Origin: Coemansia sp. RSA 487
Lineage: Eukaryota > Kickxellomycota > Kickxellomycetes > Kickxellales > Kickxellaceae
Length of the DNA stretch: 64,000 nt
Direction: 5' to 3'
Assembly: GCA_027577595.1 (NCBI GenBank)
Contig: JANBRJ010000052.1
Span: 52,978-116,977 of the forward strand
Shown here: positions 9,235-37,106 of the stretch, one piece after another
How the letters are laid out: every line of letters begins with the position of its first letter
How positions within the stretch are numbered: position 1 is the first letter of the stretch
Notes under the pieces: generated by a model
What the model was told of the DNA's origin: nothing
Databases searched by the model: none
What the model saw: the letters and a program-made list of their open reading frames with translations, nothing else
Program-made: the position numbers and the translations under genes

Positions 9235-10506
9235 CTAGATTATGCCATGACTAAGTCGTCGCGATCGGTTGTGGTTGTGAGAGTAGCGATCGATGTGTTG
9301 CTGAGAGAAGCTTGGGCTGCTGTGCACGCGTTCCATTCTGCTGGTGTTGGTGTTGGTATCGCCAGTGGTGACGATGCTGAACCGACTCCAGCGATCGGAA
9401 TCGAGCTCGTCTGCGCTTGTTACGCTTAGATCGTCCAGATCGAGAACAGTATGTTTTGGAGGACGGTGCTGACTGTGGAGGCTACTGTCTTCGTACGACG
9501 GAGGGAAGGCTGGGTCATGCTGCACGCTTCCTTCAAGCGAGTCGGAATGCGCGGCAAGCAGAACAGTTTCTGACACGTTCTGGTACATGGGCGGCGGCAA
9601 GCGGGCTCCCTCTGGAGGCGCCAGGCCCCAGTGACGCATGTTTGCATGTGCAAGGACAAAGGCGCGGGCACCAACATTGACATTGAGGCAGCAGGGACCG
9701 TCAGCAGAGACAACCGGATACATACGCTTGTGGGCCCATGGCGTCCTGATGTGGCAAACGATGGCTCCGTTGACAGTGAAAAATGTCTTTCCCGAGTTTG
9801 GCCGCCAGCCAACGCCGAGCGTGTCGCTTGTACGCAGAGAAGTTTCGACTCTTCGGCAGACGTCAAGGGGGTGGCAGTAGTAGACGCATCCGTCAAGGGT
9901 GTGGAGGGCAATGGAGTTGCGGGCCCAGCCAGCCATCCTCAGCGGCGGATAGTCGCGCATCGCGACGCCAAGCGCAACATTTGTGCCCTCCGGGAGCCGG
10001 TCCAGACGCACCTCGTAGTAGTACACTCGCTGCTCGTTGGGCATCTGTATGTTTGCAATGAGCGAGTGCTCTCCACCTGAAAACTCGATCTCGGTGCGGT
10101 TGTGAACAGCCACGTCGGTATTTTCATACGCAGGGCCAAATTCCCAAGCATTGGCGCCGTGCTCGACCACAAACTCAGTGTCTGCTGCGTGGAGCCCGCC
10201 TTCGCTCTCGTCGATAAAGTGTGTTGCCGCGTACTCACCAGCGTATACGTGGTTTTGCATGGCCCGTGTGCCCTCGAGCCGCGCCAGCGTCTCATCCAGC
10301 GATAGCTGCTGCACTTCCTCGTATTTCTTGATCCTCTCCGCCTGTCGCTCGTAGCAGCGACCACGACGGTGCCTGCGCCGTAGCGCCGGGAAGACGCAAG
10401 GCAGCGGCCGGCCATGTATCACATACACCCGCACTAACACGCCGATGCCCACCATCGCAATGCACACGCAGACCGCGGCCACAACAGCTGTAGCAAGCAT
10501 GGTCAT
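9235..10506 (-). CDS. SPRY-domain membrane protein of the Ear1/Ssh4 type (putative Rsp5 adaptor), copy 1
   Basis: Starts at the ATG at 10506 (MTMLATAVVAAVC); 423 residues. An N-terminal transmembrane segment (about 1-28) precedes a basic stretch (RRRHRRGRCYERQ), a helical linker, and a SPRY domain (about residues 130-290) with YYYEVRLDRLP, VALGVAMRDYP, DTLGVGWRPNSG and TFFTVNG strands. The C-terminal tail carries a PY motif, PPSY (in AFPPSYED), the signature that binds WW domains of Nedd4/Rsp5 ligases. Membrane segment, SPRY and PY motif together match yeast Ssh4/Ear1, which recruit Rsp5 to ubiquitinate membrane cargo at endosomes and the vacuole. A second, clearly related gene lies at 15603-17126. 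Confidence 0.82.
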   Translation of the reverse strand: MTMLATAVVAAVCVCIAMVGIGVLVRVYVIHGRPLPCVFPALRRRHRRGRCYERQAERIKKYEEVQQLSLDETLARLEGTRAMQNHVYAGEYAATHFIDESEGGLHAADTEFVVEHGANAWEFGPAYENTDVAVHNRTEIEFSGGEHSLIANIQMPNEQRVYYYEVRLDRLPEGTNVALGVAMRDYPPLRMAGWARNSIALHTLDGCVYYCHPLDVCRRVETSLRTSDTLGVGWRPNSGKTFFTVNGAIVCHIRTPWAHKRMYPVVSADGPCCLNVNVGARAFVLAHANMRHWGLAPPEGARLPPPMYQNVSETVLLAAHSDSLEGSVQHDPAFPPSYEDSSLHSQHRPPKHTVLDLDDLSVTSADELDSDRWSRFSIVTTGDTNTNTSRMERVHSSPSFSQQHIDRYSHNHNRSRRLSHGII

Positions 10507-11314
10507 TGCCAAAGAACAGGATCTATACTGCCCGATCAAGTTGTGCTTGGCTCTTAAAGAGTTTGTATATCCGTTGCGATATATTACTCACAAGGCTATA
10601 ATCAGTAATGCTATAAAAATGTAGCTCGATAGTTATAGAAGGAAAGAAGCGAGCAACTGGCAGAGCGAGCATCGACGGAACGCGGTGGATCCGTGATGCA
10701 CAAAAGTGCTCAGATAATATGTCCAATGGGGCGTCTCCTCCGCGCTCGTTTCCAAGGTAGAAAGGCTCTGTTGAAAGGGTATCATTGGCCTGACGTGTCT
10801 CAACAGTTTGCGGTAGCAGGAGCGGGAAATGCCAGATGATTTGCCATTAATGGCGTAGCCCACGGCTGTACACTGGCTGAGTTTGCGCTCGTTCCTTGGC
10901 TTGTCTTGTGTGACTGTGCCCCCAGCTCAAAAGCAAATCGGACCCAGCAGGCAAGAGCTACAGATATTTTTGCAAATCGCTGTTGTTTCTGCTGAAAGGG
11001 CACCAGCTGTCTGCATACTGGCTCATTTCCCTTCTGGCTCTTGAGCCAGGTGTTTAAATTGCCGAAAAAGAAAGTGCGATTTTTTCTCCCACAGATCAAA
11101 AGAGCCTGCCTTGCTCTATTTTTTTTCCCACGCTCCACCTGCGCACATGGTACAAAATAATCGCTTGCTTAAGCCATCGGAAAGGCGGACGACCAGACTG
11201 TGATTGCAAGCATCTCCTTCTTCTCCTTCCCCTTCTTCTTGACAAACAATATTTTATTCTATTCCGATCAACCTGTATACCAGCCAACTGCAGACTTTGT
11301 GTAGCTCAGCAGCA
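10507..11314. promoter_or_regulatory. Divergent intergenic region between SPRY gene and BCKDHA
   Basis: 808 bp, longer than most spacers here. Just upstream of the E1-alpha start it holds a strong pyrimidine tract on the plus strand (tctccttcttctccttcccc, near 11213-11234), common in 5' flanks of genes in this window. Several short frames cross it, but none has recognisable composition or conserved motifs. Confidence 0.4.
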
Positions 11315-15083: not shown

Positions 15084-15602
15084 CTTCAGCTTTTTTTTTT
15101 TGCTTAGTTATCTGCGTTAACCATTTATAAAACGAGCAGCTCTTATACTGTGGAAAGGGTATTTCAGTAGTGATCATTGAAATTTCGTGCACGGCAACGT
15201 GTAACAATCAGCCTATAAAATACAGATGGCTAACTGTGTAGAGTATGATCCTAGTCACGGGATACTGCGTGTAAAAAGGTCTGCCAAGGCTGAAAAGTGG
15301 ATGCTGTATTTTCTTTCTTTCACATTTTCTCATTGCAAGCCAATTAATATCTTTTTCTTTCTTTATATTCTGGCCGTCCTTTTCCGTGTCTTTGTAGCGA
15401 GACAAGACTGATTTCCTTGTCAAGCACTTGTCCAGCCTCTTTTCTATTTCTAATTAAAGCGGCCCTTTCAATTATCTCCTTTCCAGCTAGTCCATTTTTG
15501 TGGCCTTTACCAATTCCTTCCAGCTTGAGCTATACCTTTTTATTTTTTCCCCACAGAACATTCAAGAAAGGCGCAGACATTTGAGACCTTGAAACATACA
15601 AA
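15084..15602. promoter_or_regulatory. Divergent intergenic region LTO1 / SPRY copy 2
   Basis: 519 bp. It contains a T10 tract just upstream of the LTO1 ATG (15091-15100) and T-rich tracts at 15308-15370 and 15536-15550 ahead of the SPRY gene. Short frames at 15208-15423 and 15226-15411 lack conserved features, so I treat them as chance. Confidence 0.4.
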
Positions 15603-17126
15603 ATGCCGAGCACAAGGTGGCTTTTGATTGCTGCTGTTGGGTTCTGCCTGGCAGCAAGCGCCAGTAGTTCTTACTTGGCTGGGAGATCCAATGCAAATGG
15701 CGAGCGCAAACAAGGCTTATCGCACATGCACGTATTCGGGGCGTGGGCCGGCAACAGCAAAACCAACCTTTTCAAAATAACAGGCAATGACGATGATGAT
15801 GACGACGACGACGGGCTTTTGACGGCGCTTATACTTCTTGTTGCAATCTGCGGAACGGTTGTTGGAATTGGGTTTGTTGTAACAATGGTTTTTGCGTGCG
15901 TGCAGCTATTCAAGAGCGTACGGCGTTTCCTGTTTGGCGTAGACGAGTACGGGGTGTCAGAGCGCATGCGAAGCCAGATCCTGCTTGACGAGGACTCGCG
16001 GCAGAGCTACGAGCTGGCGCTGGCGTTTGAGCGGCAGCACCCGTATGGAAGTGTCAACACGCAGATGACGGCCGAGCAGCAGTCACAGGTGCGCGAAAAG
16101 GGCGTTGACGCATGGGAGTTTGTTGTGGATCTCGATGTGAATGCGATGCTCCAGAGCAAGACGGAGGTTTTGTTTATGGGGGGAGAAAACTGCGTCCAGA
16201 CAAACCTTCCGCTGCCAAAGACAAACTCTGTGTACTACTTTGAGGTGAAGATTGTCGAGAAGCCCACTGATGTCAACATGTGGATTGGGCTAGCAACCAA
16301 GCCATATCCCGTGTGGAGAATGACCGGATGGAACAAGTACTCGACGGGCTATTGCGCCAACACTGGTATTGTTCACCAAAACAGCCCATTCAAGGGTGTT
16401 CGTATTGGTGAGCGGCTGTTTGTTGGCGACATACTGGGAATAGGGTATCAGCCACGCAGCGGCGTAGTGTGGTTCACGCGAAACGGCCGGCGATTCAAGG
16501 CAATCGTTTCTGGAATGATGTACGACCTGTTTCCGACGATATCCGCCGACGGCCCGTGCTCGTTCAGCGCCAATTTTGGGCAGCGCGGGTTTGTGTTTAT
16601 TGAGGCCAACGTCAAGCGCTGGGGATTTGGGCCAGTCGAGGGATCGATGCTGCCGCCGCCCATTTACGGTGCCAACCAAAACACAATCCTGCTTGAGACT
16701 GCGGTTCCGTCCTCTGGCGATGAAGACGACGATGACAGCGAGCTGGGAGGAGGGTCGGCAGTAGGCACCGACGGGAACGGGGATGTTCAGGCACCACAAG
16801 CGTCGTCTTTCGGGCCAGGAAGCAGGGCCGCCCCAGACGACAGCGCTGTTGTTATTGACATTGCAGACCACAACAATGAATCAGCGCCGCTTGCGGCTGA
16901 GCCACAAAACATCCGGCGCAGCAGCGGCAGACGAGCGAATGGGGTGCACAAGCCACCGCAGTATCAAAAGGAGGATCCAATCGCCATGCAACTGCTCGAG
17001 GCAGGGTCCACTTCTTTAGAGCCAGTGGTCAGCTATCGGAACAAGAACCCCGACCTGCTTGAACCGCAGAGCCCAGGCATAGCCTCAAGCGTACCGTCGT
17101 CGTCCTCGTCGTCATCGCCGGACTGA
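15603..17126 (+). CDS. SPRY-domain membrane protein of the Ear1/Ssh4 type, copy 2, with signal peptide
   Basis: 507 residues, ATG start. A cleavable-looking signal peptide (LLIAAVGFCLAASASSS, residues 6-22) is followed by a lumenal Asp-run (codons at about 15787-15813), a transmembrane helix (ALILLVAICGTVVGIGFVV, about 75-100), and a SPRY domain (about 190-330) with YYFEVKIVEKP, MWIGLATKPYP, DILGIGYQPRSG and WFTRNG. The acidic, disordered C-tail carries the PY motif PPQY (in HKPPQYQKE). It is related to copy 1 (9235-10506): the order of SPRY strands, the W-x-F-G linker before LPPP, and the PY motif are shared. Copy 1 lacks the long lumenal N-terminus. Expected role: Rsp5/Nedd4 adaptor on endosomal or vacuolar membranes. 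Confidence 0.85.
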   Translation: MPSTRWLLIAAVGFCLAASASSSYLAGRSNANGERKQGLSHMHVFGAWAGNSKTNLFKITGNDDDDDDDDGLLTALILLVAICGTVVGIGFVVTMVFACVQLFKSVRRFLFGVDEYGVSERMRSQILLDEDSRQSYELALAFERQHPYGSVNTQMTAEQQSQVREKGVDAWEFVVDLDVNAMLQSKTEVLFMGGENCVQTNLPLPKTNSVYYFEVKIVEKPTDVNMWIGLATKPYPVWRMTGWNKYSTGYCANTGIVHQNSPFKGVRIGERLFVGDILGIGYQPRSGVVWFTRNGRRFKAIVSGMMYDLFPTISADGPCSFSANFGQRGFVFIEANVKRWGFGPVEGSMLPPPIYGANQNTILLETAVPSSGDEDDDDSELGGGSAVGTDGNGDVQAPQASSFGPGSRAAPDDSAVVIDIADHNNESAPLAAEPQNIRRSSGRRANGVHKPPQYQKEDPIAMQLLEAGSTSLEPVVSYRNKNPDLLEPQSPGIASSVPSSSSSSSPD

Positions 17127-25051: not shown

Positions 25052-26426
25052 TCAAACGTGAAGCGCAGCCTTGAGCTCCTTCTCGCGCTGTTCAGCCTCT
25101 GCTTCTGCTAGGGCTTTCTTTGCCTTGCGAGCTTGGCGCGCAATGTACACATGGCGGTTCTCGATGATGCGCTCGATGATGGCGGTGGTGGTCAGATCCA
25201 GACGTGGGTGCTGAACCTCGTGGTAGATGCCCTTTGTCTTTGGCAGCGCGTACGGATCGGTGCCATCGATGTCCAGCGGCTGGTCGCTTGCGCCATGCAC
25301 TACTGCGTCGACGTGGTAGACGTCCTCCAGCACGTCTTTCGTCACGCTGTAGGGCGCACCAATGATGACCTCATCGACATAGCGGCACTGGAGCACACCC
25401 AGAACACGCTCCTGCAGATTCATCACAGGGAAGTTGCCGCCCTTGACGGAGTTGACTGCCTGGTCGTCATGCACGCCCACAAGGAGATAGTCGCCCAGCT
25501 CGCGCGCCTTCTTGAAGAACTCGATGTGGCCAGTGTGGAACAGATCAAACGCCCCGTCCACATACACCACTCGGTCGCCGGGCTTCGGGTCGCGTCCCGA
25601 CGAGAATTGAATGATCTTCTTCGATGTCGACAAGTAGTGGGCGATACCGATCATGCCGCCCGCTGCCCTCGAGCCCTGTGAGAAGTCCGCCACGGCAGTC
25701 TCGTCGACGCCCTGAATCGGCGATTTCCCAGACCGCGGACCGCGGATGTGGTGGTCGCGTGAGACAAGCAGCATGCGCCCAACCAACTCCGTCGTTGAGA
25801 TGCCGACGGTGCGCCTGCACTCCTTGTACCGTCCAGCGTCCTTGACCAGCTGGTAGCAGTCTGTGCCGTCGGCCGCCGTGGTGATGTCGTCACCATGCAC
25901 CACAAAGTCGATGTCGTATGTGTCAAGCATCTCCAGCGTCGTCACATACGGTGCATCCTTGACCACCTGGTCCACCCACTTGCACGCAGCCACCGCCGCA
26001 TAGCGCTCGTCTTCCTTCATCACGCACGGGCCTTTGTTGCTTTCCACCTCGGCATCCGAGTGCACCCCGACAACCAGGTAATCGCCCATCGCCCTTGCCT
26101 ACAGTCGACAACAGAAAAAAAGCCAGCCATAAATAATCAGAGTCCGATTAGAGACCAGTTCCAAACCATACACCCATTGCAGAGCTTTCTTTCAATACGT
26201 TACCTGGCGCAAGGCGTTAGCGTGGCCAAAATGCATCATGTCAAAGCACCCGTCGACCCAGACACTATAGAAGGAGGAGGAGGTAGATAAAGAGGTGCTC
26301 ACAAGAGCGCTGCAGTTAGAACTGTGGGACAGGTAGAATTCACTTTGGGCACAGACGGCGAATTAAAACACGACCTTACCGGATGGGCTTGCGACCAGCG
26401 CTTGAATTTGTGTTTGTGTCTGCCAT
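25052..26426 (-). CDS. ECT1: CTP:phosphoethanolamine cytidylyltransferase, three exons
   Basis: Minus-strand exons: 26426-26380 (MADTNTNSSAGRKPI plus 2 nt), 26264-26204 (61 nt) and 26098-25052. The introns of 115 and 105 nt start GTAAGG and GTAACG and end TATAG and TGTAG. The joined protein is 384 residues, close to human PCYT2 (389). Two cytidylyltransferase folds are present: the first with VDGCFDMMHFGHANAL (variant HFGH) spanning exon 2, and RTVGISTTELVGRML; the second with YVDGAFDLFHTGHIEFFKKA (HTGH). It makes CDP-ethanolamine in the Kennedy pathway for phosphatidylethanolamine, the lipid conjugated to Atg8. Exon 2 contains only the first CTP-binding motif. Confidence 0.93.
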
Positions 26427-26656: not shown

Positions 26657-26849
26657 CAGTAAAAAAATTCAATGCAACTAGTTTTGCAAAATGCTGCATT
26701 GGAAATTCAAATGGAGGAAAGCTGTTCGTCATCAGCAAATGGTCGATCAACGTGGTCAAACGCTATGGCTAAAGATGTATACGCGTCGAATGGTGAAGGG
26801 TTTACGGCGGCAATAATGCATTTTGCGCTCCAAGAAAAAGCCGTTTGCG
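26657..26849 (+). repeat. Left inverted-repeat arm of the mobile island
   Basis: It contains CAGTA (26657), a palindromic TTTTGCAAAA (26682-26691) flanked by CAATGCA/TGCATTG arms (26670-26676 and 26695-26701), and a 77-bp block (26773-26849) matching the reverse complement of 31473-31549. About 70 bp between the TTTTGCAAAAT motif and the 77-bp block are absent from the right arm. All ten mismatches in the 77-bp block are transitions. Confidence 0.7.
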
Positions 26850-27047
26850 CGGGCGTGGCATATGCGTCAGTGCAAAACAGGAGAGCACACGAGAAAGCAC
26901 AAATGATTAGTACTGTTGTCTAGAAGCATTCACAGATGTTTATCTCTTCAGCTCTCATTCGAGCACCTACCTGCAAAAGGGACAGTATCCAATCCTAGAA
27001 CTAGGATCTGCCGCGGCTATAACCTTAGCTGAATTTCATGGTGGTCG
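26850..27047 (-). ncRNA. Candidate Fanzor guide-RNA (fRNA/omega-RNA) region downstream of the Fanzor stop
   Basis: In characterised TnpB and Fanzor systems the guide RNA is transcribed from the 3' end of the nuclease gene to the element end. Here that is the minus-strand stretch between the Fanzor stop (27048) and the left repeat arm. It contains a perfect hairpin ATCCTAG-AA-CTAGGAT (26992-27007) and a CCGCGG palindrome (27011-27016). The location and hairpin are seen; the RNA itself is inferred. Confidence 0.3.
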
Positions 27048-29122
27048 TTATTTGTCTGTCCTCGCCGTCTTCCTTTTCTTCCTGGGCTGCTGTTCATCGG
27101 TGGTAGCAACGGCTGCAGGCTGACTGCGACAGAAGCGCTCTGGAGCCTCAGCGTGATCGCGAAGGCTATGGAAAATATGCCTGAAGTTGAGAACGGCGGC
27201 AAGATCTCGGTTGTACATGCGTGAACGAGGAACCAAAACACCATCCACTTCCACGGGCCCCATACATAGTTCGTTGGTGCACTTAAGGAGGCCGTGGCAG
27301 AGGACTTCTTTCATCTTCTCTCGTTGGTAGGGGCGGGGGTTGGGCACTTTCAGGAACTTCTTGAGAGTGCCGGTGAGGCAGTTCGGGCAAGCCTTTGACG
27401 TTCTGAATTCGTCAATAAGATAGACTCGGCACCCTTTCTTCCTCAGCATTCGTCGAAATCCGACCCCCGTATAGGCTCATGGTAGCGAGTCATTGGCGCA
27501 CTCCAGTTGCCTAAGATCACAGTAGGTTTTTCATCGTCGCAGGTCACCCGAATCCTCTTTGCTAGCCGCTCATCGGCTTGTTGCTGCTTGATGTGGGCCG
27601 ATTGCCGAAGCTTGCGATGAATTGGCTGAGGGTTGTTCCGATTCTTGCTGGTGATCATGGTGTTCGTGTAGAATTCACTCAGCACTGGCCAAACAGCAGC
27701 ACGCGTCCTGACATATTGCTCATATTTGCCTGGCAATATCGATGTGCACGAAAAAGCAGCCAATCTAGCCTCGGCAGCCTTGATCTCGTTGCTGTCTGGA
27801 TGCTCTTTCTTGACCTTTTCCCTGAGCTTGCGGTAGCGGGTTGTCCAAGTTTCTTTAGCCTTCTGGCTCCGTGTGTATCGGAAAAGAGCTTTCTCCTCGG
27901 AGGTACTTTCATCCGTCATGCCAAAGATAATGTCCTGGCGACCTGGATCCATGAAAATTGGATTTTTCATGCTGGCCAGCTGCTCTGGCGAAAGCTCGTG
28001 GATATATGTGAACTCGCCCGGCTTCTTTTCTCCTGGCTTTTCTCGCTTCCTGGGCTTCTTGGGCTGGTCCTCCGGCAGTGAGCCAGTAGCCGTGTTCTCA
28101 GCTGGAGCCGTCAGCCCATTTCCGCTGGTCTCAATGACAGCATTTGTTTCAGTACCCCTTTTCTTCGCTTTCCAGCTGCTTTTTTCTTTAGCCTTTGCAG
28201 TCTTTTTGAGCACTGACACCGACACACCATCAGTCTGTATTGTGCCATAGAATCTGAAGCCGTTTCTTGTCCGTAGCACCCTCGATTTTTCGTTGAGAAA
28301 TTTATACCAATATATTTCAATGGGAAATTTCGCGTTATAGCTCCAGCCCATTATGCTTTTACATAATACAGTGGCGTCAATTTCGATGTGCATCGGCACA
28401 AACGACTTCCGCAACGGGAAACACTGGAAAGATCTGTGGTCGTTGTCATATGCTATCAACACAGGTTCAAGCATGTCCCCAATGTTCTTGCCACCAACAG
28501 TGGTAATTGGAAGAACAGTGTTGCGGTGCTTTATTGCCTTTTTCAACTCTAGTCCGGGTTCCCAAATCTGGTCTTCATATGCTTTCTTTATCTCATCCGC
28601 TGTTCTGCCCTTCATTGCCTCCTCGAGATCCCTCTTGCGCTCTCGAGTTTTCAGCAGAACATTTACTGCACGCCGAAGATACTGACCAAACTTGGTCTGT
28701 ATATTATTCACGTATGCAGTGTAAATTCTTGCTGCCTCGAACTGTGCTGTCTGGTTTGGGTTGGCTATATCAAACTCTGTGATGCCAGCAGCCTCCTTGT
28801 ACGCATCCAGGTGCTTGCGTATGACCCTCCTGTACTCCTGGATTTCAGCCTTGACATTCGGCCTGGCTTTCCGCTTGGTGAGGTGCAGGAATACCTCACC
28901 AAAAAACCTCTTTTCCAGGTACACAGAGGGATCGAACTGCTTGTGAGTAGCCAGCTCATGGACAAATATCCACCGAGCCAGCCCATACATGTGTGCAGAG
29001 GCTGTGCTGGCCACTATGACATAGTCGTTTACCTTGGTAATGTCATTTCTATCATTCACCAAAGATTTTAGGGGACACTTTATAACGCGTGTCCCTGTAT
29101 CTGATATATCCTCATTGTCCAT
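27048..29122 (-). pseudogene. Fanzor RNA-guided nuclease (eukaryotic TnpB relative), interrupted by one frameshift
   Basis: Part 1 runs from the ATG at 29122 to 27443 (559 codons); part 2 lies in another frame, 27449-27048 or slightly upstream. Part 1 holds the N-terminal recognition region, a Lys-rich linker and RuvC-I with Asp392 (FMDPGRQDIIFGM). Part 2 holds the Fanzor-type glutamate in VYLIDEFRTSK, a CPNC...CHGLLKCTNELC zinc ribbon, the RuvC-III Asp in YNRDLAAVLN, and a terminal nuclear localisation signal (PRKKRKT). The frames overlap at a C5 run (27464-27468; G5 on the coding strand), where the missing base most simply lies. All catalytic residues are therefore present but split. A sequencing error, a real inactivating indel, or programmed frameshifting could each explain it. 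No GT-AG intron joins the frames without removing conserved sequence. Confidence 0.85.
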
Positions 29123-29707: not shown

Positions 29708-30893
29708 ATGAAGCCGCCGACGAATTCGGCCGCGTTTGAAACCTTCCTTGAGGAATATATACTCTTGTACAAACACAGTGTACACGATATCGGACAGGGG
29801 CTTGCAACAGATATCTTCATTGCGAAGCTTCTGATCAAGCTTTGTAATCGATTCATTACTGAAGCAGTCAGTTGATCTGCGCCTGGCGGTCCTGAAATGG
29901 AGATCCATCTGAAAGAGGGGTCTGAACCGGTCGCCAGGGCGCCGTATCGTTTGTTACATGCAGAGATGGAGAAATGAATAGGCGAATTGCTGAAGAAAGG
30001 TCACATTTGCACGTCTACGTCGCCTTGGGCTGCCCTGATTTTGTTTGTATGCAAGAAGGATGGTACGCTGCGCATGTGCGTTGATTATCGCGGCTTGAGC
30101 AAGTGTACGATTGAGGATACGTTTCCAATGTCACTTATTGATGACTTGCTTGATCAGACACATGGCGCGCAGATGTTTTCAAAGATCAATCTTGTTCAGG
30201 CATATCACTGGGTGCGTATTCGTGATGAGGGCATTCCGAAAACGGATTTCCGAACGAAATTGAGATCGTGTGAGTACACGGTTGTACCGTTTGGGCTGGC
30301 CAATGCACTGGTGATGTTCCAGCAAGTGATGAACCATGCACCACGCAATTTGATTGGCAAGTGTTGCACCGTGTACTTGGATGATATTTTGGTTTTGTTA
30401 TAACAAAACTAAACTTCAAATTAAAACCTGCTTTCCAAACCCGAGCTTCTGCTTAAAACTTAAACAACATTTGGATGCAGTGCTCGAGCGTTTGCAGGAG
30501 AACAACCCACGTACGAAGCCAGAGAAATGTGAGCTTTTCAAGGATTCGGTCGAGTTCTTGGGTTATGTGATCACGAAGGACGGCTTGAGAACAGATCCAG
30601 GCAAAGTGGCAGCAGTTAAAAATTGGCGTGTGTCCGAATTGTTTACTGATGTTCGGGCTTTCCTCGGTCTTAGTGATTATTATCGTCGTTTTGTCAAAGA
30701 CTGCTCGCAGATTGCTATGCTACTGATGAATTTGCTGGCGGCGAAGGAATTTGTTTGGAATGACGAAGAAAAATCGGCATTTAATGAGCTGAAGGAACAG
30801 CTGTCGTCTGCACCGATTATCAAGCAGTTTGATCCGAAACGAGCGATTCGTGTTGAAATACCGCCATTTTACTTTAGACCAAAGCACCTCTAG
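29708..30893 (+). pseudogene. Ty3/gypsy retrotransposon pol fragment (reverse transcriptase), degenerate
   Basis: A short frame at 29708-29875 (55 residues) may be residual gag or pre-RT sequence. From 29897 the protein-level match to Ty3/gypsy RT is clear: EIHLKEGSEPVARAPYRL, STSPWAA, CKKDGTLRMCVDYRGL, FSKINL, VPFGLANA, and the catalytic box YLDDILV, continuing after a disruption into RTKPEKCELF, FLGYVITKDGLR and FLGLSDYYRRFVKDCS of the connection region. In-frame stops occur near 29972 and at 30401-30403, where about 70 bp of A/T-rich unrelated sequence interrupts the fingers-palm region. The fragment ends around 30880 before RNase H and integrase, directly against the mariner remnant. No LTRs were recognised. 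It is non-functional. Confidence 0.9.
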
Positions 30894-31138
30894 AATTTAT
30901 AAAGAGTAAGTGTGGAGGCAGATATAGGCGCTTGTATCCTCTGTTTTCTATTATTTCGAATTGCTAATGATGTGTCGATTGGAATATTGTCCATCACAAG
31001 ATAATAGTCTTTCATGTTCTTTGCATCCAGTACATTGATTGCATCTGAGATGTAGGCCAGAAAATGCTCTGTTCGTGTGCCAGCACGCCCACTAATCCTG
31101 ATCTCGTTGCCATTGGCTCCTCTTTTTGGCAGCAGAAA
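30890..31138 (-). pseudogene. Tc1/mariner-type DDE transposase fragment, degenerate
   Basis: Minus-strand translation gives KRGANGNEIRISG, then AGTRTEHFLAYISDAINVLD and KDYYLVMDNIPID, the second-Asp block of Tc1/mariner DDE transposases (normally '..YF.VMDNAPIH'). After one frameshift it continues IENRGYKRLYLPPH, the '.RGY...YLPPYSP' motif. The expected NPIE.FW third-acid segment is missing because the sequence joins the Ty3/gypsy fragment at about 30890. The N-terminal DNA-binding part and the first Asp are not recognisable between here and the right repeat arm, although short open stretches exist (31139-31330). It lies on the same strand as Fanzor. Confidence 0.75.
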
Positions 31139-31472
31139 CGGCTTGAGGCCTTTTCAATGAAGCATCCATCATATAAATGCATGCAAACATGTTCTCTGGC
31201 TCCTTATTCGAGTAACGGTCTTCTTCCAACATATCTACACCCGACAAAGAGTGCATAACTTAGTTGTTGTTCTTGTTCAAGGTAGTGGTGGTATTTCTTC
31301 AAATTGTTAGGTTTTATCAGGATCAATACTAACTAATCGCATTGAAAGCACAGGCAGAGACCGAAAAGCCCCAATCCATTTTAGTGTGAAATAATATGCG
31401 TGTAGCGAACAGCTTTCCCACAAAGCTCCGTTTGCACCTCTTGCTTCCAAGCGCAAATATATCGCCAGCTGA

Positions 31473-31581
31473 CGCAAACGACTTTTTCTTGAAATGCAAA
31501 ATGCATTATTGCCACCACAAACCTTTCACCATTCAACGCGTATACATCCTTGTTCGATGTAGCTAATTTTGCAAAATACTG
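31473..31581 (-). repeat. Right inverted-repeat arm of the mobile island
   Basis: Its minus strand reads from CAGTATTTTGCAAAATTAGC at 31581 inward to a 77-bp block (31549-31473) that matches 26773-26849 in inverted orientation. A TA dinucleotide flanks the end at 31582-31583, consistent with TA target-site duplication by mariner-type elements. In both arms the opposite strand is open in one frame (around FFL.. KMHYC.. KPFTI), so an old coding origin is also possible. Confidence 0.7.
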
Positions 31582-31751
31582 TATTTCTTGTTTACTTTTA
31601 CTTTTTTTTTTTTTAATTTGCGAGCTTACTGTGACATTTGTTCTTCTCGATCCATATCTTTTCTCACTAATTACCCTCCGGGTTCTTGGCGTTTAAAGGT
31701 GTTAGCTGTACGTTTTTATTCTGCTCACATTCACCTGCGAGTCTTTGCGAA

Positions 31752-34700
31752 ATGCCTCAGTCAGCGCAGCGTGTACTATTTGCTCAGCCATCGTCGGCAG
31801 CTATCGCAAGCCTTGATGATGCCGCCACAGCTGGATACCACAGAGCGTTTCTTTCTAAGGGCGTTGTTTCTTGGTCTGTGGATGGCAGGTTCCTAAGGAG
31901 CTTTCGTCTCAACAGCACCGCAAAGCCCTTAGTAGATACCCAAGACGCTGTGCACTTGGTGTTTGCTAAGTTCAACGACAGCGGCGGAGCCGACAGCACA
32001 CTATCTGTATCCCTGTGCATATTTGGCAGCGACACGCTGACCATCCACTGCTACTCGGGTGAGTCGTACACTGTAGCGCTTCCTTTTGGTGTGCAGAACG
32101 TGGCCGCACTCCGAGAGGGTATTGTTGTTCAGCGCAGAGCTGCCGATCCAGCAGACTCCAGCCCCTTCTCGTCCAACATCCCCACCTTCTTCAGTCTGCT
32201 GGGACCGCGGAGCGAGTTTAAGATGATTGGGCTGAGTCGCCCAGCGGATCTGGATGCCATACGCAAGCTGAACGGTCGGGAAATCGTCCTCAGCCCCACC
32301 CCCGCAAAGCACAGCTCTGGGACTGTGCCTGTGTTCAACGACCCGAACGCCATGCTTGTTGCAGCTGCTACTTCCAGGCACGGCAGTGCTCCGCGCCAGT
32401 TTGTTCTTTGCTGGGACACAACCGCCCGGAGACACACGCTCTACCAATGCGTTGTGCTTGAACGGACATCAGAATGCGACAGCCAGCGCGGCACCAGCTC
32501 AGATATACATACAGATCCAATGCCTACCCGCCGCACATCCACCTCAGACACAGAGCGCCCGTCTGCATCCCGCCCAAGGCTGAATCGCCAGGCATCGCTG
32601 TCGGTCCATCGGCGCTCTTCTGCTGCTGTCTCCGCTGCTGCAATAGCTGCCGTATCGAGACGCAAGAGCGGCTACAGCACCGCTGTGAAAAATGATCGCA
32701 GAGGTTCGTTGTTGGGTCGTGTTTCGTTCAATGACTCACCTGGTATTGGTTATGCCGCCGATATGTTTAGCGAGCAGCGGCAAATGCGAGCCGAGGTGGT
32801 GCTGCATAGACGCTGGAAGGATAAAAGGCCAAAGGATGACACGGATCGTACTCGCAGTCCTCCGGGCACCGACATGTGTGTGGTGCAAACGGCTTCTGGA
32901 AAAGACATTGTTTGCATCCTCAACAAAATGTCGAAACAGATCATTGGCATTGACGTGCTTACATTTACGGAGATTTTCCGCTGCTCTGCGCACTCTATGA
33001 CGCCGGTACAGACCTTATCGCGCGGTCTGGATGACCTAGTTGTTGTTGATCCGTCTGGCCACATTGCAATATTGGCCATATGCAGCGACAATAGCAGCAG
33101 CAAAGGCGACGGCACTGTAGCTGGGGACGATGGATGCCACGGCTATGATCTTATCAGACTCAACACTGTGCATCAGGGGCATGTTGTAGATATAGACAGC
33201 TCGGAGGGTAGCATCCTCAGTGCGGTGGTCGACAACTCTGACTCGCGTGTTGCTATTTCTGCGCGCATAAACATATCGAGGCTTGCTGCTGCTGTTCTTA
33301 GCGCACTTTCGCTTGTTCTGCCAAAGGAATCGTACTTTCTGCTTTGGCGAAGTGTGGTTGCTTCGTTGCTGAAAGCCCCTGATGCCCTGTCGGAAATGGG
33401 CCGCATTTCGTCGTTGTTGCTTTCTGGAAGCGATAAAGGACACCCAGCACCAGTCACATTGGCTCTACGTGTTATGAACGAAATTCGAAATCGTTCAGCA
33501 GCTGTCTTATATGTACTTCAACTTGTGTATGAGGATGCTGCCCTATACAAGTCTGAGTCGCAGCCACGATTGTCACTGCTTGGACGTCTTCTTTTCCAGC
33601 TGGCAGACAGGGCAGGCTTTTCGAATGCCAGTATATTTTATCTGAGCCATGGATTATTTCTCAATGGCAGCTCCAGATCAGAGCACAGCAGCAGTAGTAG
33701 CAGCTCTTCATATCAGCAACACAGCAGTCACCATAAGTCTTCTATAGTACCTTCGCTTGCCAAGTGGGCCACAGCCGCGCTTACCTCCATAAACACACGA
33801 CCGTTGATGTTTCCGGGGTTATCTGATTCTCGCGAGATTTTTGATATAACAGACTCAGAGCCTGCGCGCGGCGCCTACGAATCCCTAGTGCTGCTAGATA
33901 CATTCTCCAACATTGTCTACAATCTTGCTGCTGGTCATGATCCGATGCGCGTACTGCAGAACCTAGCTGCGGCAAAAAACCCTGGCCTGATTCTCTCGCA
34001 GATGCGACCAGAATTCCAGTGGATCATCTGTAGTGCTATGCTTAGGCTACGCGACCTGAGCACAGTGCAGTGGCCGGAGGATGTGCTTCGCTTTCTTGGG
34101 CGTCTTGACTTGATTGCCAACTCGAGCACCAGCATTTCAACAGGCATTGGTTGTACTTTTGGAAGCCAGTACACGATTGGAAGTGGTACAAGCAATGTTG
34201 GTAGCATCATTGAGAGAAAGGCAGCAAACAGCCAGTCTGTAAACCCCAGCAGCATTGCCGACCTGTGCGGCCAAATCCGCGATCTGGCTGCCAACACCAG
34301 CAATAGCCTCAGTCCAGAGACAAATCTATCCGCAGAGTATCGGGAGGTTGGACAGAGGATGTTTAGCTCTGACCTTCGTGTTGAGGAGGTCGAACGTTTG
34401 CTAGACGACAACGCGGTTACATATACGACTGGCGCTCTTGTTTCCGCAGAACTCGCAGAAGATCCCGACGAAGCAAAGATGCGCTACATGGACCTGCTAG
34501 CCCGCCGTGTTTTTGCGCTGCCTTTGGGGCAAGCGCTCCTAAAATATAGCACTTGTAACCTCAATTCACAAGCTTCGCTGACCGCTTCGCCGCCTCGAGT
34601 CAAAGCGCGCTTTCGAGGAAATAAAGTAGAGACTGACTGGTCGGCTGAGGAGACAGATGTGTGCTGGCCACTTTTCCATAGCGGGGTTGCTGCAGCTCTC

Positions 34701-37106
34701 ACTATAGATAGAAACCAGCTACGGCAAGCTCATCCGTCGTGGGTGCTTCTCCATTGGCCGTCGGAGGCCACTGCTAATGCCGACAATGCTAGTGACGAAG
34801 AGACCAAAAGGAAATACAAGGATGCATTGTCTATCCATGCAGGCTTTCTCTTTGGAATGGGATTGATCTCTAATCGAGATAGCGGCAGCGATGGCAAACA
34901 GCCGCTGTCAAACGGTCCTTTGTGCAATATGCCTCCATGGCAGGCATTCAAGTATCTAAGCATACGACACAGCCTGACGTCCAGCGCGCTGTTGCTAGGC
35001 AGATCCTGTGCGCACAGAGGCACAATGGACACATCCTTAAGCAAAATCCTTTCTCTGCACATCCCAAACCTTCTTCCGCCTGGCTCCGCCGAGATGATGC
35101 TGCTTTCGTACGGCACGCAGGCTGCCGCGATGCTTGGACTCGGTCTGCTCTTCATGAAATCGCAAAACAGACGGATGGCTGAGGTTATGCTGCACGAACT
35201 TTCGAATGTAAAAAGAGCAGCCCCAGACGTTGCGGGCAGCCGCATCGACGACGCCGATCCTGCTGAAGGCACTGCTGAATGTTACTCTCTTGCATCTGGG
35301 TTTGCGTTAGGTCTGGTCGCTTTGGGCCGAGGGCTGATAACAAGGACTCTTGCGGATTTGTGCTTACTAGATTCGCTTTCAGAGATGCTTGCTGGCCGTT
35401 CTGGCTCTGGTAATACAGCACGCCATCATTCAGAGATGCCGAGCGATGGCAGAGCTGCCGAAGGATATGGTGCGCGGTTTGGATCGACGGCATCCATGTT
35501 TGGCAGGCCAAATTCCATAGACGTCGGCAGCAGAGTATCAGATCTAGGCGTTATAGCGGCGATTGGGCTTGTCTTTGTAGGGACGAATTACAAGCCAGCT
35601 GCACAACGCTTGTCGCTCCCAACAACGCTCAACCAACTAAAAGTAGCAGACCCCTTTGCTGTGCTATGGAAAACGCTGATGCAGTCTTTGGTTATGCTGG
35701 ACCACATCCGTCCAGAGAAAGCGTGGGTTGAATCAAAAGTTCCATCATTGCCGGGAATGACCCGTGAACCACGAAGCGCGGATATCCAGCGCATACGCTT
35801 ACATGTCGTATCTGCCGCTTGCTTCTCAATAGCCCTCAAGCACGCAGGAACGGAAGATCGCAATGCCCACTCGACAATCCTTGCTTACTTTGATGAGCTG
35901 GCATCCATTGCTGGAAGATCGGCTCTGGGGTATGAATCGAGCCTGACCCGCTCTTCAGCCCAGCTGTGTCTTGATATTGTGTGTATTTCGGCAGCGCTTG
36001 TTATGGCCGGAAGCGGCGATATCGAAGTTATGAGGCGACTGCGTGCATTGCACAGTATCAGCGGAAACCGCTCTTACGGCAACCATATGGCTTCGCACAT
36101 GGCGCTGGGCATTCTGTTCCTGGGAGGCGGTGCTCGATTCACGATATCGCGTTCAGTTGACAGTATTGCGCTGCTGGTGATTGCATTTTTCCCTCGATTC
36201 CCACAACACTATTCTGACAACCGCGAGCATCTCCAGGCATGGCGGCATCTGTGGTCGCTGTGTGTAGAGCCGCGTTGTCTTGTTGTGCGCGACGCAATTA
36301 CCGGACAGCTATGCGAAGATGCGACTGCGATAATATTCAAACAAAATGGCGATGGAAATACTCTATCTGAAGCTATTGCATTTCCAACGACAATGCTGGC
36401 GCTTAAAAATGGATTTTCTATGCGTCTCCAGGCGCCTGGGTATATCCCGTTGGTCATTGATATGAACCAAACTACTGGAGCTCCAGCGTCGAGTGGCCAA
36501 AGAAGCGTCTTGTATATGCAGCCACGCCAACAGCAAGCAATAGCACAATTCAAGGAGTCTGTTTTAGCCACAGCTCATATACAACAGCAGTACCAGGAAT
36601 GGCTGCAATGGGTACAGACACAAGTACTGGCCTTGATCGAGCAGCTGGCAGAGGGCGAACAAAGTGCATTACTCATGACACTAGAAGAAATCACAAGAAC
36701 TCTTTCTGCTGTTGAGACGCTCCGTGTCTTTGTCCATTTCTTGGCAAGCCCGCTGTTTATAGATGTAGCTGATGCAGCGCCATGTTTCAAAGAAGACGGA
36801 TCCAAAAGCAGCAAAGGCAACAGTGCTTGGGTAGAAACGACATATCTTGCATGGCTTGCTGTTCGTAGATCTGTGCTCGAGTTTGGATGCACAGATACTG
36901 GCCGATGTGTCCTTACGGCATACTGGAGCGATGTCCAGTCAGCGACGTCCTTCAGCTCGCAATGCCACGAAAGTCGCCAATCCTTCTATGTGGCTGTTGG
37001 CTTGCTTTACGCAATGCTCAATCTACCCTGTCTTGCAGATATACAAGAAATATTAAAGCATGTTCCGATTTCTTCTCTTGTAGACTATTACCTGGTTGGT
37101 GGCTAG
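31752..37106 (+). CDS. APC1: Anaphase-promoting complex subunit 1 (APC1/Cut4)
   Basis: The frame opens upstream from a non-ATG codon; the first ATG is 31752 (MPQSAQRVLF), giving 1784 residues in one exon. The N-terminal ~450 residues form a beta-propeller-like region with a Ser/Arg-rich insertion (about residues 255-330). The diagnostic APC1 block is WQAFKYLSIRHSLTSSALLLGRSCAHRGTMD and ILSLHIPNLLPPGSAEM (about 1060-1120), followed by proteasome/cyclosome-type repeats (AAMLGLGLLFMKSQNRRMAEVMLHEL, GFALGLVALGRG, GVIAAIGLVFVGTNYK, HMALGILFLGGGARFT). APC1 is the scaffold of the ubiquitin ligase that triggers anaphase and mitotic exit. Length and order agree with fungal and animal APC1. Confidence 0.93.
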   Translation: MPQSAQRVLFAQPSSAAIASLDDAATAGYHRAFLSKGVVSWSVDGRFLRSFRLNSTAKPLVDTQDAVHLVFAKFNDSGGADSTLSVSLCIFGSDTLTIHCYSGESYTVALPFGVQNVAALREGIVVQRRAADPADSSPFSSNIPTFFSLLGPRSEFKMIGLSRPADLDAIRKLNGREIVLSPTPAKHSSGTVPVFNDPNAMLVAAATSRHGSAPRQFVLCWDTTARRHTLYQCVVLERTSECDSQRGTSSDIHTDPMPTRRTSTSDTERPSASRPRLNRQASLSVHRRSSAAVSAAAIAAVSRRKSGYSTAVKNDRRGSLLGRVSFNDSPGIGYAADMFSEQRQMRAEVVLHRRWKDKRPKDDTDRTRSPPGTDMCVVQTASGKDIVCILNKMSKQIIGIDVLTFTEIFRCSAHSMTPVQTLSRGLDDLVVVDPSGHIAILAICSDNSSSKGDGTVAGDDGCHGYDLIRLNTVHQGHVVDIDSSEGSILSAVVDNSDSRVAISARINISRLAAAVLSALSLVLPKESYFLLWRSVVASLLKAPDALSEMGRISSLLLSGSDKGHPAPVTLALRVMNEIRNRSAAVLYVLQLVYEDAALYKSESQPRLSLLGRLLFQLADRAGFSNASIFYLSHGLFLNGSSRSEHSSSSSSSSYQQHSSHHKSSIVPSLAKWATAALTSINTRPLMFPGLSDSREIFDITDSEPARGAYESLVLLDTFSNIVYNLAAGHDPMRVLQNLAAAKNPGLILSQMRPEFQWIICSAMLRLRDLSTVQWPEDVLRFLGRLDLIANSSTSISTGIGCTFGSQYTIGSGTSNVGSIIERKAANSQSVNPSSIADLCGQIRDLAANTSNSLSPETNLSAEYREVGQRMFSSDLRVEEVERLLDDNAVTYTTGALVSAELAEDPDEAKMRYMDLLARRVFALPLGQALLKYSTCNLNSQASLTASPPRVKARFRGNKVETDWSAEETDVCWPLFHSGVAAALTIDRNQLRQAHPSWVLLHWPSEATANADNASDEETKRKYKDALSIHAGFLFGMGLISNRDSGSDGKQPLSNGPLCNMPPWQAFKYLSIRHSLTSSALLLGRSCAHRGTMDTSLSKILSLHIPNLLPPGSAEMMLLSYGTQAAAMLGLGLLFMKSQNRRMAEVMLHELSNVKRAAPDVAGSRIDDADPAEGTAECYSLASGFALGLVALGRGLITRTLADLCLLDSLSEMLAGRSGSGNTARHHSEMPSDGRAAEGYGARFGSTASMFGRPNSIDVGSRVSDLGVIAAIGLVFVGTNYKPAAQRLSLPTTLNQLKVADPFAVLWKTLMQSLVMLDHIRPEKAWVESKVPSLPGMTREPRSADIQRIRLHVVSAACFSIALKHAGTEDRNAHSTILAYFDELASIAGRSALGYESSLTRSSAQLCLDIVCISAALVMAGSGDIEVMRRLRALHSISGNRSYGNHMASHMALGILFLGGGARFTISRSVDSIALLVIAFFPRFPQHYSDNREHLQAWRHLWSLCVEPRCLVVRDAITGQLCEDATAIIFKQNGDGNTLSEAIAFPTTMLALKNGFSMRLQAPGYIPLVIDMNQTTGAPASSGQRSVLYMQPRQQQAIAQFKESVLATAHIQQQYQEWLQWVQTQVLALIEQLAEGEQSALLMTLEEITRTLSAVETLRVFVHFLASPLFIDVADAAPCFKEDGSKSSKGNSAWVETTYLAWLAVRRSVLEFGCTDTGRCVLTAYWSDVQSATSFSSQCHESRQSFYVAVGLLYAMLNLPCLADIQEILKHVPISSLVDYYLVGG

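What the first reader, a model, noticed from the sequence alone, without database searches (positions are those of the whole stretch)
27048..29122. Fanzor RNA-guided nuclease gene with all catalytic residues but split by one frameshift
The gene has RuvC-I Asp (FMDPGRQD), the Fanzor-specific glutamate in DEFRTSK, a CPNC zinc ribbon, RuvC-III Asp (YNRDLAAVLN) and a terminal nuclear localisation signal. The break sits between RuvC-I and the glutamate, at a G5 homopolymer on the coding strand. Fanzors are eukaryotic TnpB relatives, established as RNA-guided DNA nucleases. A near-intact copy in a fungus is of direct interest, especially if the frameshift is an assembly error or a recoding site.
Basis: partly seen in the sequence, partly recalled or inferred. 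Interest (0 to 1): 0.85.

Follow-up and report, generated by a model that had tools for sequence, protein, structure and literature searches.

The report
Decayed mariner-borne Fanzor copy in fungus
The gene is a real but doubly broken copy of a Fanzor RNA-guided nuclease carried by a mobile element that is repeated many times in this Coemansia-like fungus, where uninterrupted sister copies exist, so it is a new member of a known kind rather than a near-working novelty.

Summary
Both frames belong to one Fanzor1 gene (hits to solved Parasitella and Spizellomyces Fanzor1; D, E and D align with the SpuFz1 triad). The frame break is not the only lesion: the copy also lacks 34 residues (102 bp, in frame) that all 19 other spanning copies in hand keep and solved Fanzor1 proteins share, and its right end is damaged. 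The break is not a recoding site (17 of 22 copies are continuous there). An assembly error is unlikely but not excluded: a gene named from Coemansia sp. RSA 1813, probably another isolate's assembly, ends in the same tail. The gene sits in a Tc1/mariner-like element with inverted repeats, a transposase remnant and a reverse-transcriptase fragment. By hand count the genome holds about 39 five-prime and 100 three-prime parts of the family, including gene-less "ghosts" as known in S. punctatus. Six paralogs show dN/dS 0.21-0.40. Left flanks, not right, read [CA]ATA, close to SpuFz1's CATA TAM. An omegaRNA was not demonstrated. New member of a known kind.

The parts
27443..29122 (-). Fanzor1 gene, first frame (ATG at 29122 to its out-of-frame stop): N-terminal part and RuvC-I Asp
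   Evidence: phmmer E 1.8e-50 to 9cf0; most family copies 82-93% identical in the matched pieces
27048..27476 (-). Fanzor1 gene, second frame: catalytic Glu, C4 zinc ribbon, RuvC-III Asp, basic C-terminus
   Evidence: E 1.5e-28 to 9cf0; Pfam TNB domain weak (E 2e-4, below its cut-off)
27440..27480 (-). frame break between the two frames
   Evidence: 17 of 22 family copies are continuous here
28430..28450 (-). junction of a copy-specific in-frame 102-bp deletion (34 conserved residues)
26850..27047 (-). 3' untranslated stretch between stop codon and right inverted repeat; expected place of an omegaRNA, not demonstrated
26771..26849 (-). right terminal inverted repeat; the outermost part of the family's end is missing and unrelated sequence follows
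31473..31581 (-). left terminal inverted repeat; flanked on its outside by the TAM-like AATA (coding orientation)
30893..31153 (-). remnant of a Tc1/mariner-like DDE transposase
   Evidence: weak alone (DDE_3 E 0.14); three longer homologues in the genome hit DDE_3 at E 6.7e-16, 1.3e-22 and 3.5e-19
29978..30890 (+). reverse-transcriptase fragment (Ty3-like, a label from recollection), broken, shared by several copies of the element
   Evidence: RVT_1 E 1.4e-17
26668..26700 (.). element-end-like fragment facing the other way, outside the damaged right end

Best explanation
This is a recently decayed copy of a Fanzor1-bearing Tc1/mariner-like transposon family of a Coemansia-like fungus. In intact family members the transposase would move the element between its inverted repeats, and Fanzor1, guided by an RNA read from the right end into the flanking DNA, would cut the empty site next to a CATA-like motif, so that repair copies the element back. 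Shown here: Fanzor1 identity, multi-copy family with uninterrupted members under purifying selection, inverted repeats, transposase homologues, short gene-less copies, left-flank motif. Inferred from Spizellomyces and other Fanzors: guide RNA, cleavage and copy-back. The window copy itself should make no active nuclease: frame break plus loss of a conserved 34-residue segment, and its right end, where a guide RNA would end, is damaged.
For: Both frames match solved Fanzor1; D/E/D align to SpuFz1 D383/E541/D606, one numbering offset (394) of chain 8gkh fitting all three. Five paralogs open to the C-terminal end and a sixth with its first ~70 residues in another frame; pairwise dN/dS among these six 0.21-0.40 in all 15 pairs. 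Both window halves against five of them 0.16-0.37, so the lesions look young. Inverted repeats 87% complementary over 79 nt. Transposase homologues with frames of 298-317 aa; on contig C19 one of them (L045) and an uninterrupted Fanzor (L008) lie on one strand between two family ends. Short copies with both ends. Left flank A at -3 in 18 of 20 ends against the mirrored base in 9 of 30 right ends, Fisher p 3e-5; SpuFz1 TAM is CATA.
Against: No transcript data. Among 12 ghosts pairwise identity is about the same in the inner left arm (0.84), coding tail (0.84) and 3' stretch (0.86 for the first 75 nt, 0.83 after), and lower in the end repeats (0.80, 0.78), so no special constraint on a guide-RNA region. 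Covariation is weak, 2 of 34 pairs with compensatory change, and there is no Rfam match at E up to 1. Target site duplication is not clean: TA on both sides in 4 of 11 two-ended copies.
Confidence: 0.83

Rival explanations
1. The frame break is a sequencing or assembly error in a homopolymer.
For: It lies in a homopolymer; two other copies (L074, L017) share the same length state and two more (L066, L079) are altered near it, as a hotspot or an error-prone site would give.
Against: A gene named from RSA 1813 on a 116,978-bp contig (window contig 116,977) ends in the same tail, though its independence is not proven. Even without the break the copy lacks 34 conserved residues.
Confidence: 0.12
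2. The break is a programmed frameshift (recoding) site.
For: Overlapping frames, homopolymer, both frames constrained.
Against: 17 of 22 copies are continuous at this point; the five copies open to the C-terminal end need no recoding.
Confidence: 0.01
3. The truncated product (RuvC-I half only) is kept as an inactive, DNA-binding regulator, like TnpB-derived repressors (recalled, not looked up).
For: The first frame is open for 559 aa and constrained.
Against: Constraint is similar in the second frame, so it reflects the past; the 34-residue loss hits a conserved segment; the right end is damaged.
Confidence: 0.02
4. The left-flank motif is a target preference of the transposase, not a Fanzor TAM.
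For: Mariner elements target TA (PMC3627910, passages); TA is part of the motif.
Against: A symmetric transposase target would mark both flanks; the -3/-4 bias is on the left only.
Confidence: 0.2

Closest known systems
Spizellomyces punctatus Spu-1 elements (SpuFz1) and their ghost elements, Saito et al. 2023 (PMC10432273; section 7 and passages seen)
   Same: Multi-copy Fanzor1 (about 82% identical between copies there), inverted repeats, many gene-less ghosts (134 there), Gypsy/Ty3 in some loci there and an RT fragment here, CA on the left flank and CATA TAM there, same catalytic triad
   Different: Here ghosts are about 1 kb and keep the last ~95 codons; transposase homologues lie in family members; no guide RNA shown
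Parasitella parasitica Fanzor1 (PDB 9cf0; PMC11423790, passages seen)
   Same: Closest solved relative over nearly the whole length (E 7.3e-103 for an uninterrupted paralog)
   Different: PpFz1 TAM reported as ATN; about 100 residues of PpFz1 between aligned blocks (chain 995-1096) have no counterpart here, perhaps its FRI insertion, not checked
Fanzor1 in Tc1/mariner elements, Bao and Jurka 2013 (PMC3627910, passages seen)
   Same: Fanzor1 captured by a mariner-type element
   Different: Other organisms; the elements there are said to be flanked by TA duplications, here not clean

Membership tests
Fanzor1 | D-X(125,275)-[TS][TS]-XX-C4 zinc finger-X(5,50)-RD (PMC3627910) | tested here: met
   Met by uninterrupted paralogs, checked by eye on the positions (D429, T612 S613, C616, R676); in the window copy the motif is split over two frames
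Fanzor1 | DPG at RuvC-I and glutamate six residues before the zinc finger (PMC10711439, passages) | tested here: met
   FMDPGRQD; DEFRTSKAC
Fanzor1 | Sequence relation to solved Fanzor1 | tested here: met
Fanzor1 | Right-end omegaRNA with guide from flank | tested here: inconclusive
   No regional constraint or strong covariation
Fanzor1 | TAM-like motif on the left flank | tested here: met
   [CA]ATA on left ends (n 20), not on right ends (n 30); function untested
Fanzor1 | RNA-guided DNA cleavage | not testable with these tools
   needs biochemistry
Tc1/mariner element | DDE transposase in the element | tested here: met
   DDE_3 E 6.7e-16, 1.3e-22, 3.5e-19 in three homologues; window remnant only E 0.14. 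DDE_3 covers more than Tc1/mariner; the finer label rests on recalled motifs
Tc1/mariner element | Terminal inverted repeats | tested here: met
Tc1/mariner element | TA target site duplication | tested here: inconclusive
   4 of 11 two-ended copies

The most novel reading that the evidence does not exclude
Many of the short copies that keep the last ~95 codons and right end of the Fanzor gene each supply a guide RNA of their own, so that a handful of intact Fanzor1 genes is fed by a genome-wide scattered guide set and polices scores of element sites beside CATA-like motifs.
Probability: 0.15. Interest if true: 0.55.

Novelty: new member of a known kind. Interest (0 to 1): 0.3.

Why it matters
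It would add the Coemansia lineage to the hosts of multi-copy Fanzor1 transposons with ghosts; a library search for Fanzor with Coemansia found no paper (open-licence PubMed Central papers only). The one-sided CATA-like flank in a second fungal lineage is a testable TAM prediction from sequence alone. The window copy itself matters little, since uninterrupted relatives exist in the same genome.

Tried and rejected
Programmed frameshift: rejected by paralogs. Assembly error: unlikely, not excluded; on checking I could not show that the RSA 1813 record is an independent assembly, so its odds were raised from 0.08 to 0.12 and those of the main reading lowered from 0.85 to 0.83. Guide-RNA evidence from conservation: in 17 gene-bearing and 17 other copies the first ~60-70 nt after the stop are about as conserved as the coding tail, but among 12 two-ended ghosts the regions are alike, so I do not claim constraint. 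Only copies whose match covered nearly the whole 3' end entered; truncated ones (such as L004, L009, L013, L017, L072) did not. Structure: RNAalifold on 31 of the 34 sequences gave 34 pairs, 2 with compensatory change; the window copy, L053 and L070 were left out because their right ends are rearranged or gapped. Sliding windows, 40 shuffles each, gave z between 1.1 and -2.1, except one small terminal hairpin with z -4.0 in one window and an undefined value in another. Rfam: nothing. End flanks: the window's own ends and matches that stop short of the terminus were left out. A 15-protein alignment was made, but structure prediction was not run, since comparison with solved Fanzor1 was already decisive. 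tRNAs: none. NCBIfam: guided_TnpB E 0.025, far below its cut-off.

Full report
Identity. The region holds two overlapping minus-strand frames. phmmer against solved structures gives Parasitella parasitica Fanzor1 (9cf0) at E 1.8e-50 for the first and 1.5e-28 for the second frame, and Spizellomyces punctatus Fanzor1 (8gkh) at 1.6e-16 and 5.4e-15. The aspartate of FMDPGRQD, the glutamate of DEFRTSK and the aspartate of YNRDLAAVLN align with SpuFz1 D383, E541 and D606, which the structure paper lists among the metal ligands (PMC10432273, passages); one numbering offset (394) fits all three. Pfam and NCBIfam are weak on this family. The basic tail KKRK is NLS-like by eye only.

Second lesion. Aligned with an uninterrupted paralog, the window copy lacks 34 consecutive residues in frame, between two repeats of Asn-Asp. 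All 19 other distinct copies in hand that span the place keep the segment, a few with small indels (locus duplicates merged by hand with the list). It aligns with PpFz1, SpuFz1 and, more weakly, GtFz1. By the residue labels quoted the aligned SpuFz1 stretch lies in the REC part; that is an inference from numbering. So the protein has two independent lesions.

The frame break. Of 22 distinct copies covering the point (duplicates merged by hand), 17 are continuous across it; two of these 17 (L004, L015) have another break shortly downstream, and some carry lesions elsewhere. The window and two others (L074, L017) share one length state, and two more (L066, L079) differ otherwise. A recoding site is therefore not needed. 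The database protein P0014 (IW140_004127, Coemansia sp. RSA 1813, contig 116,978 bp; the window's contig is 116,977 bp) matches the window's first frame in all its 465 residues, with a predicted 50-residue gap and a later start, and ends in the same out-of-frame tail. The break is thus probably in two assemblies, but this is not proven: isolates in this set look near-identical. Contig lengths of the window's genome equal those given for RSA 487 proteins on C17 and C140 and for an RSA 1813 protein on C60, so I do not claim which isolate it is.

Family. By hand count of those tables, about 39 places at 75% identity or more contain the N-terminal part and about 100 places at 65% or more contain the C-terminal part; both are rough lower bounds, and pieces at contig ends were not paired up. 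Five copies in hand are open to the C-terminal end (L002, L005, L008, L011, L014), though the start of L005 is uncertain (its match begins at residue 22), and L012 has its first ~70 residues in another frame. Nei-Gojobori dN/dS is 0.21-0.40 over all 15 pairs of these six, and 0.16-0.37 for each window half against the five.

Element. The gene lies between inverted repeats 26771-26849 and 31473-31581 (79 nt scored, 87% complementary). Family ends mostly read ...GCAACTAGTTTTGCAAAACAC(A/T)G outward. Upstream of the gene lie a reverse-transcriptase fragment in the other direction (RVT_1; the label Ty3-like is recalled) and a transposase remnant; three homologues of the remnant elsewhere in the genome match DDE_3 at E 6.7e-16, 1.3e-22 and 3.5e-19, and their motifs (DEAGF, MDNAPIH, NPIEELWSKVK) are those I recall for Tc1/mariner. 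On contig C19 a 298-aa transposase frame (L045) and an uninterrupted Fanzor (L008) lie on one strand between two family ends. The right end of the window copy lacks the outermost repeat and runs into unrelated sequence. Short copies of about 1 kb (12: 954-1125 bp and one of 1403) carry both ends and roughly the last 95 codons. This resembles the ghost elements of S. punctatus: 42 gene loci, 134 ghosts, Gypsy/Ty3 in some of 11 loci with further genes (PMC10432273 section 7).

Flanks. Of 64 end matches, 50 distinct flanks remained: 20 left, 30 right, window excluded; one counted as right (L029) is an inverted copy of the right end that physically forms a left end. In coding orientation the left flank reads [CA]ATA: A at -3 in 18 of 20, C in 10 and A in 7 of 20 at -4; the mirrored right position shows the same base in 9 of 30 (Fisher p 3.3e-5; for C at -4, 10 of 20 against 2 of 30, p 7e-4). 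SpuFz1's TAM is CATA. The window's left flank reads AATA. The terminal dinucleotide is TA on both sides in only 4 of 11 two-ended copies, so the duplication is unresolved.

Guide RNA. Not shown. See Tried and rejected for the tests.

Verdict. An ordinary degenerate copy in an interesting but known type of element family; the family, not this copy, is worth study. In the papers held, none has both Fanzor and Coemansia, and the three with both Fanzor and MITE were seen only as a search listing.

Noticed in passing
G000 contigs C113, C81, C101, C54, C23, C66, C41, C65 (places): A second Fanzor1 family, 38-42% identical to the window's over the C-terminal two-thirds matched, with open frames of 675-816 aa in eight places, seven of them without a stop in the matched stretch.
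   Followed up: no
L029, contig C39 77885-78500: One element's left end is a ~610-bp inverted copy of the family's right end, including Fanzor C-terminal codons.
   Followed up: partly
G000 contigs C92, C108, C61, C170, C51, C8, first bases: Several contigs end inside Fanzor elements, so the repeats probably broke the assembly and copy counts are lower bounds.
   Followed up: no
L007, L010, L051, L052, L065, L070, about paralog codon 660: A different frame change at about the same codon is seen in gene-bearing and ghost copies, which may mean that already broken copies were amplified.
   Followed up: no
window 15585-17126 (+) and 9235-10587 (-): Two SPRY-domain proteins in one window.
   Followed up: no
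window 25052-26098 (-) and 31671-37106 (+): The element sits between a cytidylyltransferase-like gene and a gene with an anaphase-promoting-complex subunit 1 domain.
   Followed up: no
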